IMG/VR virus record: IMGVR_UViG_3300013120_000070
Span: 1 to 25,259 of that record
Length of the DNA stretch: 25,259 nucleotides
Direction: 5' to 3' (one strand)
From: a virus
Shown: positions 586 to 24,109 of the stretch, in pieces
How the letters are laid out: the number at the start of each line of letters is the position of its first letter
How positions within the stretch are numbered: position 1 is the stretch's first letter
Translations under genes and position numbers: made by a program
The notes under the pieces: model-generated
What the model was told of the DNA's origin: nothing
Databases searched by the model: none
What the model saw: the letters and a program-made list of their open reading frames with translations, nothing else

Positions 586-2640
586 TTGTCGAAAAATTTG
601 TTCGGTGCTAACCAAACTGAAGAAGATAAAGACCGGAAATACCACCGCGAATATCGTGTGATTCGTCGAGGTGATGAACGCGATATCGAGGTTGATTTTT
701 CACGTCGCGACATGGATCGCGTCAAGGCCGGGGAAGATCCGGTTCAATTCTGCAGGATCTATTTTCCAAACATTTTTTATTATCCGTTCACCGACGACCA
801 ACTTGCGATGATCAAAGCGATCGCCGATCGAATTCACTTCGGCGGTCAACAAGCGATCGCGGCTGAACGCGGCGGCGGCAAATCGACGATCACCAAAGTT
901 GTCGGCGGCATTTGGGCGATGGTATATGCCTTGATTGATTGGGTTGTGATCGTTCGGGCGAACGCACGGTTCGCGCGTGATACACTTGACGATATCAAAA
1001 CACTCTATGAGGAATCTGAACTTCTTGCCGATGATTTCCCGGATATCGTTCAACCGATCCAAGTTCTTGAAGGTGTTGCACAACGAGCGAAGGCCCAGAC
1101 CGTTGACGGTGAACGATCGCGGCTGATCTGGAAACAAGATGAAGTTGTTCTTCCGACGGTGGAAGGATCGCCGGCGTCGGGTTCGGTGATCACGGCGATC
1201 GGCGTTGACGGAGCGATTCGCGGATTGGTGCGCGGGGCCAGAAGGCCGCGTTTGGTGATTGGTGACGATATCGAAACAACCGAAACGGCATATTCCGACG
1301 CGGCCAACAAGAAGAACCGGGATATTCTCGATAGGGATATTGGCGGCCTTGCGGGGCCGGGCCGGACAATGGCGGTGGTTTTGCTTTGCACAATTATCAA
1401 TCGCCGTTGTATCGCCGCCGAATTCACCGACAAGACGATTCGACCTGAATTCCATGGAATTCGCCAACGTTGGATCAAGCATTTTCCTGATCATCCCGAT
1501 CTTTGGGAACGATATATCGTGATCATGCGTGACGGTATGACCGCCGGCGATCCATACGGCCGCGACGCGATGAAATATTATCTTGAACATCGTGCCGAAA
1601 TGGATCAGGGCGTCGAAGTCAGCAACGTCAATCGATATATCCGCAAGGAACTTGAAGACGGATCACCGATCGAGATATCGTCGATTCAATCGGCATATAA
1701 TATCATCGCGAACAAAGGTCTTGAAGTTTTTGCGGCTGAATATCAGAACGAACCGCCGGCCGCCGCGGTCGAGGCTGAACCTATCGAGCCGAAGGACGTT
1801 CAGGCACGTTCAAACGGTTCGCCGCAAAAGCTGATTCCTTCGTGGGGTGATTTCGTCACGGCCGGGATCGATATCGGCGGCCGTCAAATCCATTATGTTC
1901 TTGTCGCATGGCGCGAAGGCCTTGTCGGTCACATTTTCGATTATGGAATTGAACGTGTTCATTCGCCGGCCGGCGATCTTCGGAATCCATCGAAACGTTT
2001 GGCAATTGAACACGCGATAATGAACGCGCTTGTCATTATCAAGGATCGGTTCGATTCCGGATTCAAGATCGATCAATCGGAAAAGAACCATCACGTTGAT
2101 TTGGTGAACGTTGACGCCGGTTATATGGAACAGGCGATCTATCAGTTCTGCCGAACGCACGGTCGTCAAATGTTCATGGCGGTCAAAGGGTATGGATCGA
2201 ATCAGCAAATCTATCGTCAACCGGATAAGCCGGGCGGTGCGCGAAAAATCGGTTATCAATTTTGGGGGAATCTTCTTGTCAACGAGCGAATGTGGTTGTA
2301 TCACGTGAATTCAGACTACTGGAAGAAGGCCGTTCAAGATGGTTTCCTTTTGCCGGTTGGTGAAAAAGGATCGTTGACGATCTTCGGTAGCAAATTCGAA
2401 AACGGCGTCTTTGCAAATCAGATTTGCGCCGAACAATGGGAACGCGAATTCAAAACCGGCAAAGGAATCATTGAAGGGTTCAAAGCGAAGTCGCACGATA
2501 ATCATTATCTTGACGCGCTTCATTATGCGGCCGTCGGCGCTTCGATGTTGGGTGTTGCATTGATCGGAGCGCCGGAAAATGTTGTCACGCAAAAGAGTAT
2601 TTCACTTGCCGCACTTCAAAAAATGAAAAGGAAATTATGA
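586..2640 (+). CDS. terL: Terminase large subunit (packaging ATPase and nuclease)
   Basis: This is the motor that pumps DNA into the prohead and cuts it. The 684-residue protein has a Walker A-like loop AERGGGKST at residues 93-101, a Walker B LVIGDDIE at about 223-230, and a C-terminal RNase H-like nuclease with acidic residues in TAGIDIGG (D429), VNVDAG (D510) and HDNHYLDALHYA (D643). Length and domain order fit a complete terminase. The start is TTG at 586; the product begins MSKNLFGANQ. No ATG lies close by and the ribosome binding site is weak. Its stop overlaps the next start (ATGA). The following gpW and portal homologues match the lambda A-W-B order. No small subunit could be recognised upstream. 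Confidence 0.95.
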   Translation: MSKNLFGANQTEEDKDRKYHREYRVIRRGDERDIEVDFSRRDMDRVKAGEDPVQFCRIYFPNIFYYPFTDDQLAMIKAIADRIHFGGQQAIAAERGGGKSTITKVVGGIWAMVYALIDWVVIVRANARFARDTLDDIKTLYEESELLADDFPDIVQPIQVLEGVAQRAKAQTVDGERSRLIWKQDEVVLPTVEGSPASGSVITAIGVDGAIRGLVRGARRPRLVIGDDIETTETAYSDAANKKNRDILDRDIGGLAGPGRTMAVVLLCTIINRRCIAAEFTDKTIRPEFHGIRQRWIKHFPDHPDLWERYIVIMRDGMTAGDPYGRDAMKYYLEHRAEMDQGVEVSNVNRYIRKELEDGSPIEISSIQSAYNIIANKGLEVFAAEYQNEPPAAAVEAEPIEPKDVQARSNGSPQKLIPSWGDFVTAGIDIGGRQIHYVLVAWREGLVGHIFDYGIERVHSPAGDLRNPSKRLAIEHAIMNALVIIKDRFDSGFKIDQSEKNHHVDLVNVDAGYMEQAIYQFCRTHGRQMFMAVKGYGSNQQIYRQPDKPGGARKIGYQFWGNLLVNERMWLYHVNSDYWKKAVQDGFLLPVGEKGSLTIFGSKFENGVFANQICAEQWEREFKTGKGIIEGFKAKSHDNHYLDALHYAAVGASMLGVALIGAPENVVTQKSISLAALQKMKRKL

Positions 2641-2831
2641 AGTTCAAGAAAAAGCATAAAGGAATCATTTGTCCGAAATGCGGTTGCAAGGATTTCTACG
2701 ATCAGGCCGGTCGGCCGTGGATTACGACCCACACAATCAATCTTCCGGGTTCAATCAAGCGGCATAGAATCTGCCGGTTGTGCGGCAAGCGAATTATCAC
2801 ACGTGAAAGCATAATAAAGCCGCTAAAATAA
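2637..2831 (+). CDS. NrdR-like zinc ribbon protein (no ATP-cone)
   Basis: The 64-residue protein has CPKCGC at residues 12-17 and CRLCGKRIITRE at about 46-57. The pattern of two CxxCG pairs, an intervening basic segment and the ending 'C..CG.R..T.E' is that of the N-terminal zinc ribbon of NrdR, the ribonucleotide reductase repressor, but the ATP-cone domain is absent. It is translationally coupled to the terminase gene by ATGA. It could be a DNA-binding partner of the terminase or a small transcription factor; the family resemblance gives fold, not function. Confidence 0.7.
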   Translation: MKFKKKHKGIICPKCGCKDFYDQAGRPWITTHTINLPGSIKRHRICRLCGKRIITRESIIKPLK

Positions 2832-2837
2832 AAAATA

Positions 2838-2853
2838 ATGCTATATATAGCAT
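2838..2853. promoter_or_regulatory. Perfect 16-bp palindrome, possible operator
   Basis: ATGCTATATATAGCAT reads the same on both strands. It lies in the 56-base gap between the zinc ribbon gene and the gpW-like gene, one of the few gaps in the head module. It is followed at 2862-2877 by a small inverted repeat (CAAAA, six-base loop, TTTTG). Either a dimeric regulator binds here or the mRNA folds ahead of the next gene. No clear promoter elements could be assigned. Confidence 0.4.
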
Positions 2854-2887
2854 ACTATTTCCAAAATGGGGGTTTTGTAGTTGAAAA

Positions 2888-3133
2888 ATGACCGCGGCGC
2901 GCCATTTTGCGATTATGGTAACTTCATATCAATCGATTCTTGACGCGATCGACGCCGAAATGTTGACCGCCGTCGATAAGCCGGGATCATTAACGGTCGC
3001 AGGTCGAACAATTGTCTATCGTTCCTTGACGGAACTAAGCGCAACGCGTGAATATTACAAAGATCTTTTGAATCAATCGACAACGATTCGTGATTCCATC
3101 AAATTCGCAAAAATCAAATCGGGTGCGCCATAA
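2888..3133 (+). CDS. Head completion protein, gpW-like
   Basis: In lambda, gpW binds the portal after packaging and allows tail attachment. This 81-residue product has the gpW layout: an N-terminal helix (SILDAIDAEML), a short beta-hairpin (SLTVAGRTIVYRSL) and a second helix (ELSATREYYKDLL). Lambda gpW is 68 residues. It sits exactly where W sits, between terminase and portal, and its TAA overlaps the portal ATG (TAATG). The start is uncertain: ATG 2888 has no good ribosome binding site, and ATG 2915-2917 (MVTSYQSIL) would remove the first nine or ten residues and give a length closer to gpW. Confidence 0.75.
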   Translation: MTAARHFAIMVTSYQSILDAIDAEMLTAVDKPGSLTVAGRTIVYRSLTELSATREYYKDLLNQSTTIRDSIKFAKIKSGAP

Positions 3134-4638
3134 TGAAATTTTGGAAAAAACTTAAGAGTTCCTTCCGGAATCGTGCGTCGGGCGTTGAGGGCACTCCGTT
3201 CGGCGCACGGAATTATGAAATTGGTCAATCGAATCGGCACGTTGACAAGCATTTCACCAATGCAACGAACAAAGACGCCGATTCACTTATCAACGCCGAC
3301 CTTGCAACGTTGCGTAATCGTGCGCGATACGAAGTTCGAAATAATTCATACGCGACCGGAATCCTTCAGACAAAAGCGAATGATATTGTTGGTCACGGGC
3401 CGCGGATTCAAATCAAAACAAAAAAGCAAACATTGAACCGGTCAATCGAGGACCGTTTCGGTGAATGGCAATTCAATTGCGACCTTGCCGGCAAGTTGTG
3501 TTTTGCCGAATTCCTTCGTTTGGTGGGTTCGGTTCAGCTTGACGAATCCGGCGAAAGCTTTACCGTTCTTCAGAGCGATGATTCGGTGCGCAAGCAACCA
3601 AAGATCCGTCTTCTTGCCGTCGAATCTGATCGGGTAACAACGCCGTGGAATCTGTCGGGCATTTCCGGGGTGAGTTTCGACGGTAGTATTCGGTATGGAA
3701 TCGAAACTGATCTATTTGGCAAACCGAAAAAATACTGGATTCTAAAAAAACATCCCGGCGCCGACAACGCATATATCAGTTATACGACAAGCGATTATGA
3801 TCAAGTCCCGGCGAATCAGGTTATTCACTTGTACCGTATCGACCGGCCGGGCCAGACACGCGGCGTTCCGTGGATCACTCCGGCCTTGCCGTTGTTCGCG
3901 ATGTTGCGGCGATATTCTTTGGCGGTTCTTGCCGCGGCCGAAACGGCCGCCAACATTGGCGGCGTCATCTATTCAGATTCACCGACGTTGACCGCCGATA
4001 ATGTTGACGCGCTTGAGGAAGTTGAGATCGAGCGGAATATGCTTTTAACAATGCCGAAGGCGTGGAAAATCCAGCAATATGAAGCCAAACAACCTACCAC
4101 AACTTACAAAGAATTCAAGGCCCAGATCTTAAACGAGATTGCGCGTTGTCTTAATATGCCGTACAACGTGGCGGCCGGCAATTCGGCCGGGTACAACTAC
4201 GCGTCGGGGCGTTTGGATTGGCAAGTGTACTATAGATCAATCAAGACGAATCAAACTTGGTTGGAAAAACATTTCTGCAACACCATCTTCAAGATGTGGT
4301 TGGCCGAAGCGCGGTTGGTTCCGGGATATATTGACGGCGATGATTATCGGCCGATTCCGTTATCTGAGATCATTTGGTATTGGCCGGGGCAACAACACGT
4401 CGATCCGCAAAAAGAAGCGCAGGCACAAAAGATCCGGTTGGAAAGCAACACCACAACATTGTCGGCCGAATATGCCGCGCAGGGATTGGATTGGCAGAGA
4501 CAACTTGAACAACTTGCCGCCGAAAAGAAGGAAAAGGAACGATTGAAATTATCGGGAGTTATTAAAGATGAAAAAAAGGAAGACAAAGAACCGACCGGCC
4601 AACCGGTTGGCACAAACAAGCCTTCAGACGAGGACTAA
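3133..4638 (+). CDS. Portal protein, lambda gpB type
   Basis: The portal is the twelve-fold ring at one capsid vertex through which DNA passes. The 501-residue protein shows family hallmarks: ARYEVRNNSYATGIL near residues 64-78, IVGHGPRI at 85-92, and RIDRPGQTRGVPWITPALPL near 235-254, followed by the long Ala-rich helix with AAAETAANIGG. Length matches the gpB family (about 500). The ATG overlaps the preceding TAA. The last 71 bases are shared, in another frame, with the start of the capsid polyprotein. The C-terminus is highly charged (EKKEKERLK and similar), as is common in portals. Confidence 0.93.
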   Translation: MKFWKKLKSSFRNRASGVEGTPFGARNYEIGQSNRHVDKHFTNATNKDADSLINADLATLRNRARYEVRNNSYATGILQTKANDIVGHGPRIQIKTKKQTLNRSIEDRFGEWQFNCDLAGKLCFAEFLRLVGSVQLDESGESFTVLQSDDSVRKQPKIRLLAVESDRVTTPWNLSGISGVSFDGSIRYGIETDLFGKPKKYWILKKHPGADNAYISYTTSDYDQVPANQVIHLYRIDRPGQTRGVPWITPALPLFAMLRRYSLAVLAAAETAANIGGVIYSDSPTLTADNVDALEEVEIERNMLLTMPKAWKIQQYEAKQPTTTYKEFKAQILNEIARCLNMPYNVAAGNSAGYNYASGRLDWQVYYRSIKTNQTWLEKHFCNTIFKMWLAEARLVPGYIDGDDYRPIPLSEIIWYWPGQQHVDPQKEAQAQKIRLESNTTTLSAEYAAQGLDWQRQLEQLAAEKKEKERLKLSGVIKDEKKEDKEPTGQPVGTNKPSDED

Positions 4639-21447: not shown

Positions 21448-22287
21448 ATGGAATCACTTAAGCAATCACTTTTGGGGCCAGATATTATGCAACCAGCGCG
21501 CACTCGACCGTCATTTGCCTTCTTCATCGTGGATTGGCTAGCGCTTTACGAGGTAAACAGGCGGCAAACCGTTTCCAACAGCGCGACCGACCTTGCACAA
21601 CTGCGCAATCGCGCGCACAAATGGATTCCGCTAAAGGTTCACGGTCACTCCATTGGGGAAGGCTGGACAAGACTTGTTGAGCTTTCTTGGAAACCGGGTG
21701 AGATCAACGAATTGGCAGTTTTCGGATTGTTCTGTAAACTGCTTGAAATCGCCGGTGATCAAGCTGAACCGGCACTTCGGGGATGGATTCTCGATGGAAA
21801 CGGCGTTCCTTACGACGTTCGGGGAATTGCAAAATTATTGAAAATTGCCGAAGAAACACGCGCCGCCGAAGCGATGGATTCACTCATAAATCTGAATTGG
21901 ATTTGCCGGGTCAGTTTCCGAACGTTTCGGAAACGTTCCGAATCGTTCCGAAAGCTTCGGAATTCCTTTTCGAAACGAAACGAAAACGAAAGTAAAGGAA
22001 ATATAAACGATCGCATGGGAATCGAAACGGAAAGCGAATCGGACGAAATCCATCCAGATATCAAGTCGGTCAACGGATTTGCTCTCATGGTACATTCGGC
22101 ATTCAAGGATTCGACAAGATCGGACGCGATCACATTCAATCGGATCGGGATGAAACTAAAAGAAAAATATCCGAACGATCCGTTCATCTTCGATAAAGCA
22201 ATTCAAGTCATCGGAAAATGCAGATCAGCAACGAACCAAAGAGCATATTTCACAAAATTGGTTCAGGAAATATTTAAGATCGAATAA
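21448..22287 (+). CDS. Replication initiator / replisome organiser, lambda O-like
   Basis: The 279-residue protein has an N-terminal part with a winged-helix pattern (ELAVFGLFCKLLEIAGD, GVPYDVRGIAKLLKIAEE, AMDSLINLNWICRV; residues about 87-154) as in phage replication proteins, a hydrophilic linker rich in Arg, Ser and Asn (155-200), and a C-terminal helical domain (KSVNGFALMVHSAFKD to the end). Such proteins bind the phage origin and recruit the host helicase loader. GAGAGGA precedes the ATG. Its gene contains a five-fold phased repeat exactly in the linker, as lambda O contains ori-lambda. It is the first gene after the terminator and no phage polymerase was found, so host enzymes are probably used. 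Confidence 0.7.
   Translation: MESLKQSLLGPDIMQPARTRPSFAFFIVDWLALYEVNRRQTVSNSATDLAQLRNRAHKWIPLKVHGHSIGEGWTRLVELSWKPGEINELAVFGLFCKLLEIAGDQAEPALRGWILDGNGVPYDVRGIAKLLKIAEETRAAEAMDSLINLNWICRVSFRTFRKRSESFRKLRNSFSKRNENESKGNINDRMGIETESESDEIHPDIKSVNGFALMVHSAFKDSTRSDAITFNRIGMKLKEKYPNDPFIFDKAIQVIGKCRSATNQRAYFTKLVQEIFKIE
21916..22010. repeat. Candidate replication origin: five phased iterons plus A-rich tract
   Basis: TTCCGAA or TTCGGAA starts at 21916, 21926, 21936, 21946 and 21956, exactly 10 bases apart, so all five sites face the same side of the helix. Ten is not a multiple of three, so the repeat is read in all three phases and cannot come from a peptide repeat. Immediately after (21967-22010) the + strand is strongly A-rich (TTTTCGAAACGAAACGAAAA..., then GGAAATATAAACGATC), suited to melting. 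The combination inside the initiator gene mirrors ori-lambda. Confidence 0.65.
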
Positions 22288-22475
22288 ACGAAACGAAAAA
22301 AACGAAAGCGAAAAAAACGTCAACATACAATTGTCACAAGTGTAATAAGCCGGCCGCCGTCGGCGATCCTTTGCGGTGTTGGTTGCATTGGATCGGTCAC
22401 GCGGCATATAAGAAGAAATTCGGGCGGCACAAATTGACGTTCAGAACAAAAAGCAAATTTGAGGATATACTTTGA
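22278..22475 (+). CDS. Zinc-knuckle ORF without a normal start codon
   Basis: This frame opens after TAA 22275-22277 and runs to TGA 22473-22475 with no ATG, GTG or early TTG. It encodes a basic run and then CHKCNKPAAVGDPLRCWLHW, a Cys/His pattern also seen in the gene at 25005 (CGIKGCDLPA...CWLH), then a basic tail (KKKFGRHKLTFRTK). The stop overlaps the next TTG start (TTGA). Codon content looks genuine. Possible explanations are a rare start (ATA or ACG), a -1 shift from the initiator gene, or a sequencing error in the A7 runs near 22296-22317. Confidence 0.45.
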   Translation, partial: DRINETKKTKAKKTSTYNCHKCNKPAAVGDPLRCWLHWIGHAAYKKKFGRHKLTFRTKSKFEDIL

Positions 22476-22771: not shown

Positions 22772-23240
22772 AAAAGAAGTTGCAAGAAAATGCTACATTG
22801 ACAACGAAGGCTTATATATCCCGGCTGACAATCTCCGGATGATGTTGATAGGGAACACGTTCAGAAAAGGTGCGGCTGAAATTCTTGGAAGCTACATTGA
22901 GAGTAAGAAGGGAACCGAATATAAGAATTTTGCAAAAGCTTGTATTTGGGTGTTGGGGCCGAATAGCGATTCGGAAAAAGTTCATTATTTGCCTTTACGG
23001 AAAAATTATGACGTCTATAAAAATACGTTTGTGACGTCAAACAAAAAACGCGATGTTTGTCATCGGCCGATTGTTACAATCCCGTGGAAATTAACTTTTG
23101 TTGTTCATGTTTACGACGACAATTTCGAATCCGGCAAGGTCAAGGAATTGTTCGAAGTCGGCGGCCTTCGTTGCGGAATCGGAGCATACGGCCCAAAGTT
23201 TGGCCGGTTCACGGTTGACAAATGGGAAGTGAATAAATAA
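22653..23240 (+). CDS. Conserved phage protein of unknown function
   Basis: The ATG at 22653 gives 195 residues; an upstream start at 22629 lacks support, while GGGAAGGA lies about 10 bases before this ATG. The sequence has the pattern of a recurrent phage family: an opening strand (YQINATIKGMVPSMHDRYP), a LYIPADNLRMMLI segment, a central RPIVTIPWKLTFVVHVYDD and a Gly-rich ending GLRCGIGAYGPKFGRFTV. I know this pattern from uncharacterised phage proteins beside replication or recombination genes. The fold may be ferredoxin-like with a Gly-rich nucleic-acid-binding loop, but that is inference. Confidence 0.6.
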   Translation: MYQINATIKGMVPSMHDRYPIEQMKPGKRTTKKKSAQDLEKEVARKCYIDNEGLYIPADNLRMMLIGNTFRKGAAEILGSYIESKKGTEYKNFAKACIWVLGPNSDSEKVHYLPLRKNYDVYKNTFVTSNKKRDVCHRPIVTIPWKLTFVVHVYDDNFESGKVKELFEVGGLRCGIGAYGPKFGRFTVDKWEVNK

Positions 23241-24109
23241 CACTTTGACTTGATCGAAAGAAAGAAGATTCGATTGAACGGGAATGAAACATATCAGAAT
23301 TGATTTCAAAAGCACAAAGCACAAACGGATTCGAGCAGAATTAAACTTCTATCAGGAAAGGAAAAAGGCAAAAAACACTATAACATGAGATTTGATTCGA
23401 ACAAACTGAACATGAACGCAAGAAAGGCAATCAGATTAAAACACAACTAGATCTGACCGGACGGGCGCAGAAGCGAGAAAAACAGCTTTGATAAGAACGA
23501 CACACAACCTGATATGATGAGATTTAACTGGAAGGAAGTCAACTAGACCGGAAAAGATTTGAACACACAAGAAACATACTTGATACGATGAAATCTGAGC
23601 GAAAAGAAGGGAACCAAACTGAAATAAACTGAAAAAGATTTGAACACACAAAAACAGGAAGTGATTAAAGGTGAGCCGATGGGAACTGAAAAGTATAAAA
23701 CAGAATACAAATTCAACCGATCTGATCCAACCGGAATTAAGTGACGAAGACAAGAAACACATAAAACACAAATGAAACTGAATGGATAGAAATGAAAAAA
23801 AACGAAGGAAAAACCATTCGATATGATTCGAAGTGAGAAGAAACAAAAACACATGAAGAAGCAAAGATTCGATTTTATACGAACTGAGCCAAACGAACCG
23901 GCGCTGAGCTTACTAGAACAAAACTAAAAACACGTGGAATCGAACTGAACGGAACGAATCTAATGACAAGAAACAGAACAGGAAAAGCACAAAGCACAAA
24001 GGGAGTCAAGGGGAATCCATGCGAACGGAATTGTTTACATTAAACGGGAAAAGAAAAGAGTAGAAGAAATTGGAATAGAAATAAACACTTTTTTTTGGAA
24101 GGAATTACA
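23241..24109. repeat. A-rich degenerate repeat array without credible genes
   Basis: About 870 bases carry no ORF with a ribosome binding site beyond a few dozen codons. The + strand is extremely A-rich and T-poor: in 23761-23820 I count 35 A and 8 T. An 18-mer AAAAGCACAAAGCACAAA occurs at 23308 and again at 23983, bracketing the region, and a 19-mer AAAAGATTTGAACACACAA occurs at 23552 and 23633. GATTYGA starts at 23267, 23328, 23389 (61 apart each), 23394, 23556, 23637, 23825 and 23866. Many AACTGA and ACACAA words recur, giving blurred units of about 60-70 bases. Open frames on the minus strand are explained by the T-rich composition. It may be a replication, partition or packaging locus, or a decayed array. 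Confidence 0.7.

What the first reader, a model, noticed from the sequence alone, without database searches (positions are those of the whole stretch)
21916..22010. Five TTCSGAA sites at exact 10-bp phasing inside the initiator gene, next to an A-rich tract
Sites start at 21916, 21926, 21936, 21946 and 21956. One helical turn apart, they face one side of the DNA. The 10-base step changes codon phase each time, so selection is on DNA, not on protein. Adjacent A-rich DNA could melt. This repeats the logic of ori-lambda within gene O with a different, near-palindromic iteron.
Basis: partly seen in the sequence, partly recalled or inferred. Interest (0 to 1): 0.72.

Follow-up and report, generated by a model that had tools for sequence, protein, structure and literature searches.

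The report
Helix-phased origin-like array inside phage gene
An uncultured phage carries five identical short DNA-binding-type sites spaced exactly one DNA turn apart inside one of its own genes, most likely its replication start point written into the gene for the protein that reads it, a layout I also find in many other phage replication-starter genes.

Summary
It is the strongest 10-bp periodicity in the window. Recoding the gene with synonymous codons reproduces a five-site run in 2 of 200,000 trials. The outer six core bases are 100% identical between units while the spacers are only 20% identical, so the DNA sequence is what is conserved.

The protein matches no family, so "initiator" rests on layout. 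A 10-bp array followed directly by a 5-bp A-rich tract is otherwise an initiator signature. In 80 viral relatives of annotated phage replisome organisers, the linker between the N-terminal domain and the C-terminal part repeatedly carries a 10- or 11-bp array, then a 5/6-bp AT-rich tract (27 of 27 in that order). The joint signature occurs in 20 of 66 such genes and 0 of 339 neighbouring ORFs. The window gene has it; 27 other window ORFs do not.

Best reading: a lambda/pSK41/SPP1-style origin inside its initiator gene, with one-turn iterons. This is a new variant of a known kind. Binding, melting and origin activity are inferred. TTCSGAA arrays in other phages look like operators, the main rival.

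The parts
21448..22287 (+). 279-aa ORF, proposed replication initiator (replisome-organiser-like layout)
   Evidence: ORF; no family hit; only window ORF with phased array plus short-period tract
21691..21912 (+). Region coding a possible winged-helix-like segment (inferred helix-strand-helix-helix order)
   Evidence: Secondary structure of a low-confidence single-sequence model (pLDDT 41); inference only
21916..21922 (.). Site 1 TTCCGAA
21926..21932 (.). Site 2 TTCGGAA
21936..21942 (.). Site 3 TTCCGAA
21946..21952 (.). Site 4 TTCCGAA
21956..21962 (.). Site 5 TTCGGAA
21966..22015 (+). A-rich tract with 5-bp (CGAAA-type) repetition at 21971-21991, candidate unwinding/loading tract
   Evidence: 66% AT, 87th percentile of weak stacking; lag-5 p=0.0005; tandem repeat
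22042..22284 (+). Region coding the C-terminal part, predicted mostly helical; candidate helicase/loader contact
   Evidence: Low-confidence model; inference
22286..22319 (+). Second A-rich CGAAA-type tract, at the end of the gene
   Evidence: Tandem repeat period 5/15; direct repeat of 21973-21986

Best explanation
The five sites are iterons of a phage replication origin that lies inside the gene of its own initiator. The N-terminal DNA-binding part of the 279-aa protein would bind the five near-palindromic sites, which lie on one face of the helix, and build a bent multimer. Strain from this complex would open the adjacent A-rich repeat tract at 21966-22015. The C-terminal part would then recruit a helicase or its loader onto the opened strand. 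The array and tract are translated as the flexible linker between the two parts, which tolerates almost any peptide. Shown: the array, its DNA-level conservation, the tract next to it, and the recurrence of this two-part layout in verified phage initiator genes. Inferred: that this protein is an initiator, that it binds the sites, that the tract melts, and that replication starts here.
For: Exact phasing with changing codon phase. Synonymous recoding gives the run in 2/200,000. Cores identical, spacers randomised, unlike a fresh tandem duplication. Array followed directly by a 5-bp A-rich tract, the only window ORF with both. In 63 dereplicated relatives of phage replisome organisers (all 24 tested N-terminal domains hit phrog_1701 DnaD-like helicase loader and phrog_6251 replisome organizer), the linker is enriched at lag 10 (24 genes) and lag 11 (17 genes) against 0-2 for lags 7, 8, 13, 14, 16 and 17. 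Among initiators versus other ORFs of the same loci: lag 10, 26/67 v 3/279; lag 11, 14/67 v 2/279. Array upstream of tract in 27/27. Joint signature 20/66 v 0/339. TTCNGAA itself occurs at 10-bp pitch in such linkers in L015, L097 and L100; L097 belongs to the family by hhalign (E 8e-6). Published precedents: ori-lambda in gene O (PMC7466680), SPP1 oriL in gene 38 (PMC6316719), pSK41 ori in the rep linker (PMC5703833).
Against: No sequence or profile homology of the protein to any initiator; its structure model is poor. No helicase or loader gene was recognised next to it among the proteins scanned. The tract is only moderately unstable. The same TTCSGAA geometry occurs intergenically in other phages in an operator-like position. 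About half of the verified initiator genes show no significant phased array (33 of 64), so the layout is common but not universal. GC skew gives no support.
Confidence: 0.66

Rival explanations
1. The array is a repressor or regulator operator, for autoregulation or an internal promoter, bound cooperatively by the gene product or another phage HTH protein, and is not an origin.
For: In a group of Burkholderiales phages an identical 4-site TTCSGAA array at 10-bp pitch, arranged as a dyad, lies between a divergent repressor region and an early gene upstream of primase/helicase genes. HTH genes in mobile elements of Verrucomicrobia and Thiosymbion carry such arrays in their own N-terminal codons.
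Against: Here the array lies mid-gene with the same-strand genes continuing; the promoter scan finds no promoter-like site at it (nearest + strand candidate 21712-21740, weak). It does not explain the adjacent 5-bp A-rich tract or the initiator-specific joint signature.
Confidence: 0.16
2. The array is a neutral minisatellite: slippage or duplication of a 10-bp unit in a linker that tolerates it.
For: 10-bp TTCNGAACCN minisatellites are abundant and dispersed in some MAGs, and L015, L033 and L054 carry near-perfect tandem copies.
Against: In the window the spacers have diverged to chance level while every core is intact. Synonymous test p about 1e-5. Phased arrays are concentrated in initiator linkers and nearly absent from 279 neighbouring ORFs.
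Confidence: 0.07
3. The array is a packaging site (pac/cos) or another phage DNA-processing site read by a terminase small subunit.
For: Some TTCNGAA repeats lie in or beside small HTH genes whose identity as terminase small subunit I could not exclude (L089, L091, L095).
Against: The terminase/portal module of the window is about 20 kb away at 586-4635. The array is in the opposite module, in a gene with initiator-type layout.
Confidence: 0.04
4. Origin-type or partition-type array read by a different protein (a host factor or another phage protein), the ORF being incidental.
For: The protein has no detectable homology. The same motif occurs in unrelated contexts, so different HTH proteins can read it.
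Against: In-gene placement directly after the putative DNA-binding region parallels initiators that read their own gene.
Confidence: 0.07

Closest known systems
ori-lambda inside gene O (Phage_rep_O initiators)
   Same: Multiple initiator-binding sites plus an adjacent AT-rich region in the middle of the initiator gene, between DNA-binding and helicase-recruiting parts (PMC7466680)
   Different: Phage_rep_O-type genes fetched here show roughly two-turn units (24-bp repeats x4 in L111, 24-bp similarity in L116 and L117) rather than 10-bp units; no homology of the protein
pSK41-type RepA_N plasmid initiators
   Same: Rep boxes centrally within rep; the ori-encoded segment is a dispensable linker between a winged-HTH NTD and a CTD that contacts primase (PMC5703833). 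Foldseek places entries titled as initiators (4pta, 4pt7) among weak winged-helix matches of the replisome-organiser NTD (no match at E <= 0.001)
   Different: Plasmid rather than phage; four Rep boxes of another sequence; no homology of the window protein
SPP1 gp38 / oriL
   Same: Phage origin with direct repeats and AT-rich unwinding element within the gene of the origin-binding protein (PMC6316719)
   Different: Different repeats; SPP1 has a second origin; no homology found
Phage replisome organisers of phrog_1701 / phrog_6251 (Geobacillus E2, Psychrobacillus PVJ1, IMG/VR L125-L204)
   Same: 10/11-bp phased array followed by 5/6-bp AT-rich tract in the linker; some arrays share TTCGGAA/TTCCGAA units (L125, L202)
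   Different: Window N-terminal domain is not detectably homologous (hhalign E 0.33)

Membership tests
Phage replisome organisers (phrog_1701/phrog_6251) | Sequence/profile similarity of the N-terminal domain | tested here: not met
   No PHROG hit at E<=10; hhalign to A2 prob 0.2, E 0.33
Phage replisome organisers (phrog_1701/phrog_6251) | Recurrent (not universal) linker DNA layout: 10/11-bp phased array then 5/6-bp AT-rich tract | tested here: met
   lag 10 and lag 5 both significant, array first; 20/66 family genes and 0/339 other ORFs show it
Lambda O family (Phage_rep_O, PF04492) | Match to Phage_rep_O domain | tested here: not met
   No Pfam hit even at E<=10
Origin-in-initiator (ori-lambda-like) elements, as a kind | Repeated sites inside the initiator gene | tested here: inconclusive
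   Repeats inside a gene shown; that the gene is an initiator is inferred from layout only
Origin-in-initiator (ori-lambda-like) elements, as a kind | Adjacent AT-rich region | tested here: met
   21966-22015, 66% AT, weaker than 87% of windows
Origin-in-initiator (ori-lambda-like) elements, as a kind | Gene product binds the repeats and replication starts there | not testable with these tools
   Needs binding assay and replication mapping
RepA_N plasmid initiators (pSK41) | RepA_N winged-HTH domain | tested here: not met
   No Pfam hit for the window protein; no PDB sequence match
Repressor operator arrays (Burkholderiales phages L003-L017) | Intergenic position in a divergent promoter region | tested here: not met
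   Window array is mid-gene; no promoter-like site at it

The most novel reading that the evidence does not exclude
Many tailed phages write their replication origin into the linker of the initiator gene as arrays of short near-palindromic sites at one-helical-turn pitch (10 or 11 bp by lineage) followed by a 5/6-bp AT-rich tract. This is a compact origin class distinct from the two-turn iterons of lambda, it can be recognised from DNA periodicity alone even when the protein has no homologue, and the iteron sequence is in some lineages also present in the codons of the winged-helix recognition region.
Probability: 0.42. Interest if true: 0.75.

Novelty: new variant of a known kind. Interest (0 to 1): 0.57.

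Why it matters
Origins of most uncultured phages are unknown and their initiators too divergent for homology search. If helix-pitch periodicity plus a short-period AT-rich tract marks initiator genes, both the gene and the origin could be called from sequence alone, with a directly testable binding site. It would also explain the odd repetitive linkers (SEGFGRVRK, LNLNSN, VEVEVE and similar) in phage replication proteins as DNA elements that happen to be translated.

Tried and rejected
Close homologues of the 279-aa protein: none in IMG/VR, GTDB species contigs, INPHARED phages or 780 genomes from two phyla (those of a Limisphaerales and a Planctomycetales MAG) (one marginal hit with an internal stop, E 0.005, not pursued). 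AlphaFold2 on the single sequence gave pLDDT 41 and was not used for fold search. GC skew: no minimum. Hairpin: ssDNA fold z -1.3, not notable. A DnaD-recognition-element idea (repeated TnnT in the AT-rich tract, PMC10201434) was checked and is inconsistent: several tracts have none. Pitch class (10 v 11 bp) follows the N-terminal-domain tree (6 changes, shuffled mean 10.5, 8 of 2000 as low), but vertical inheritance of the whole gene explains that as well as DNA recognition. Lag-10 signal inside the N-terminal codons (17 of 63) first looked like a failed control; it is partly a second copy of the same iteron motif. In one search other-ORF hits at lag 10/11 were 3 and 2 of 279, near the chance rate. 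VIA-align 2 listing of CRP-type winged helices shows only a common fold. The structure comparison has no match at E <= 0.001. Literature searches found no description of one-turn arrays in phage initiator linkers, but only an open-access library was searched.

Full report
Observation. Five TTCSGAA sites start at 21916, 21926, 21936, 21946 and 21956 and lie inside the 279-aa ORF 21448-22287 (+). The motif as such is at chance frequency in the window, 10 against 9.9 expected; the phased cluster is what is unusual. Lag 10 at 21914 gives the highest short-lag self-match of the whole window, 29 of 40 bases. With codons permuted within the gene, p is 0.0005 for lag 10 at 21913 and for lag 5 at 21971. 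When the codons around the array are replaced by synonyms drawn from the phage's own usage, a five-site phased run appears in 2 of 200,000 trials. The codon phase of the sites changes at each step, giving FR, FRK, SE, FR and LRN, so no peptide repeat can explain them. The outer six core bases are identical in all units, while the 3-base spacers agree at only 20%, about chance. A recent tandem duplication would have similar spacers, so the cores look maintained.

Context. The record is an IMG/VR fragment of 25,259 bp with terminase, portal, capsid and tail genes. Directly after the array comes an A-rich tract, 21966-22015, with 5-bp CGAAA-type repetition, 66% AT, weaker in stacking energy than 87% of windows. 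A similar tract lies at the end of the gene, 22286-22319. GC skew rises steadily and has no minimum. No promoter-like site lies at the array.

The protein. It has no match in Pfam, PHROGs, NCBIfam or PDB sequences, no relative in phages, IMG/VR, GTDB contigs or about 780 genomes of two phyla, and only a poor single-sequence structure model. Calling it an initiator therefore cannot rest on homology.

Where else the array occurs. A scan for four TTCSGAA at 10-bp pitch found 16 viral contigs; the TTCNGAA version found 66 stretches in GTDB contigs and a three-site version 34 in viral contigs. They fall into classes. (a) An intergenic four-site dyad between a divergent repressor region and an early gene, upstream of primase and helicase genes, in Burkholderiales phages; this looks like an operator (gene roles here are my reading of the sequences, not family hits). 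(b) The linker of replisome-organiser-like genes: L015, L097, L100. (c) N-terminal codons of HTH genes in mobile elements, some next to replication-type genes. (d) Dispersed minisatellites in some MAGs. So the geometry suits more than one kind of protein, and the operator reading is the main rival.

The initiator comparison. The N-terminal domain of L100 was aligned with relatives and used to fetch 80 viral loci. Members are annotated as replication proteins or replisome organisers in isolated phages, and all 24 aligned N-terminal domains hit phrog_1701 (DnaD-like helicase loader) and phrog_6251 (replisome organizer). L097 belongs to the same family by hhalign, E 8e-6. A confident model of the domain (pLDDT 87.5) has winged-helix order. 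Foldseek lists entries titled as replication initiators (4pta, 4pt7) among many weak winged-helix matches, none at E <= 0.001.

The linkers of these genes have a repeated two-part DNA structure. First comes an array of units at 10 bp (for example GGGTTCGGAA in L125, GCCCCTTGAA in L150, GGTTCGAAAG-type in L202) or 11 bp (GGTATGGATAT in L164, CACTCGTATAC in L182). Then comes a 5- or 6-bp AT-rich tract, translated as LNLNSN, VEVEVE, DSDSDS and the like. Across 63 dereplicated genes, codon permutation gives significant linker periodicity at lag 10 in 24 and lag 11 in 17, against 0-2 for lags 7, 8, 13, 14, 16 and 17 and almost none in the C-terminal region. Compared with 279 other ORFs of the same loci, lag 10 is significant in 26 of 67 initiators and 3 others, lag 11 in 14 and 2, lag 6 in 41 and 0. 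The array starts upstream of the tract in 27 of 27 genes that have both. The joint signature is present in 20 of 66 initiators and 0 of 339 other ORFs; the window gene has it and 27 other window ORFs do not. Isolated phages with an 11-bp array before the tract include Geobacillus E2 and Psychrobacillus PVJ1.

Modularity. L111 shares the C-terminal part of L100 but has a different N-terminal domain, of lambda-O type by eye, and four perfect 24-bp repeats in the same linker position. Phage_rep_O genes from Bacteroidota (L116, L117) also show 24-bp similarity there. So iteron pitch appears to go with the DNA-binding half: two turns with Phage_rep_O, one turn with the replisome-organiser type. This rests on few Phage_rep_O genes. 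Among replisome organisers, 10- v 11-bp pitch follows the N-terminal-domain tree, which also fits plain inheritance.

Mechanism. Best supported: the N-terminal part binds the five sites on one face of the helix, the complex opens the A-rich tract, and the C-terminal part brings a helicase or its loader. This is how ori-lambda in gene O (PMC7466680), SPP1 oriL in gene 38 (PMC6316719) and the pSK41 ori in rep (PMC5703833) are described; in pSK41 the ori-encoded segment is a dispensable linker. In the window, array, DNA-level conservation and tract are shown; initiator identity is inferred from layout; binding, opening and loading are inferred from precedent.

Membership. By sequence the protein is not a member of phrog_1701/6251, Phage_rep_O or RepA_N. 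It shares the layout, so it probably works like them. I call it a new variant of a known kind: an origin inside its initiator gene with one-turn near-palindromic iterons in a protein of unknown family.

Noticed in passing
window 23240-24095: About 850 bp without a convincing gene, strongly A-rich on the + strand (399 A, 144 T), with scattered imperfect repeats such as AAAAGCACAAAGCACAAA (23308, 23983) and AAGATTTGAACACACAA. Function unknown; could be a regulatory or replication-related region.
   Followed up: partly
L125, L202, L141, L192, L188, L183 (nt about 150-235 of the initiator gene): The codons of the winged-helix region carry a second copy of the same iteron motif as the linker array (21 of 22 bases in L125 and L202); 11 of 64 genes at p<0.05 by synonymous recoding. 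Suggests the array arose from, or is shared with, the DNA-binding-helix codons.
   Followed up: partly
L111 5001-5294 region; L116, L117: Initiator genes with 24-bp repeats in the linker; L111 has four perfect copies and shares its C-terminal part with L100, which has a 10-bp array instead.
   Followed up: partly
L003-L017, L046, L072, L074, L079, L085: Burkholderiales phages share an intergenic four-site TTCSGAA dyad array at 10-bp pitch upstream of an early gene (MYDDELDAAK...) before primase and helicase genes; probably an operator or early-region control site.
   Followed up: partly
L035, L037, L047, L052 (Bacteriovoracaceae): TTCNGAA arrays at 10-bp pitch in or beside an HTH gene; in L035 and L047 it lies just upstream of an Avd-like gene and a reverse transcriptase, resembling a diversity-generating retroelement.
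   Followed up: no
L039, L040, L042, L055, L061, L063, L065, L071: HTH genes (TLTVREVARMFE...ERSIINWC) with TTCNGAA arrays in or beside their N-terminal codons, some divergent from a replication-type gene in what look like mobile elements of Verrucomicrobia and Thiosymbion/Thiocapsa.
   Followed up: no
L020-L084 (Acidobacteriota E14, Planctomycetales CSMAG_3057, Prevotellaceae RUG465 MAGs): Many dispersed TTCNGAANNN 10-bp minisatellites in single genomes, a different phenomenon from the diverged-spacer arrays.
   Followed up: no
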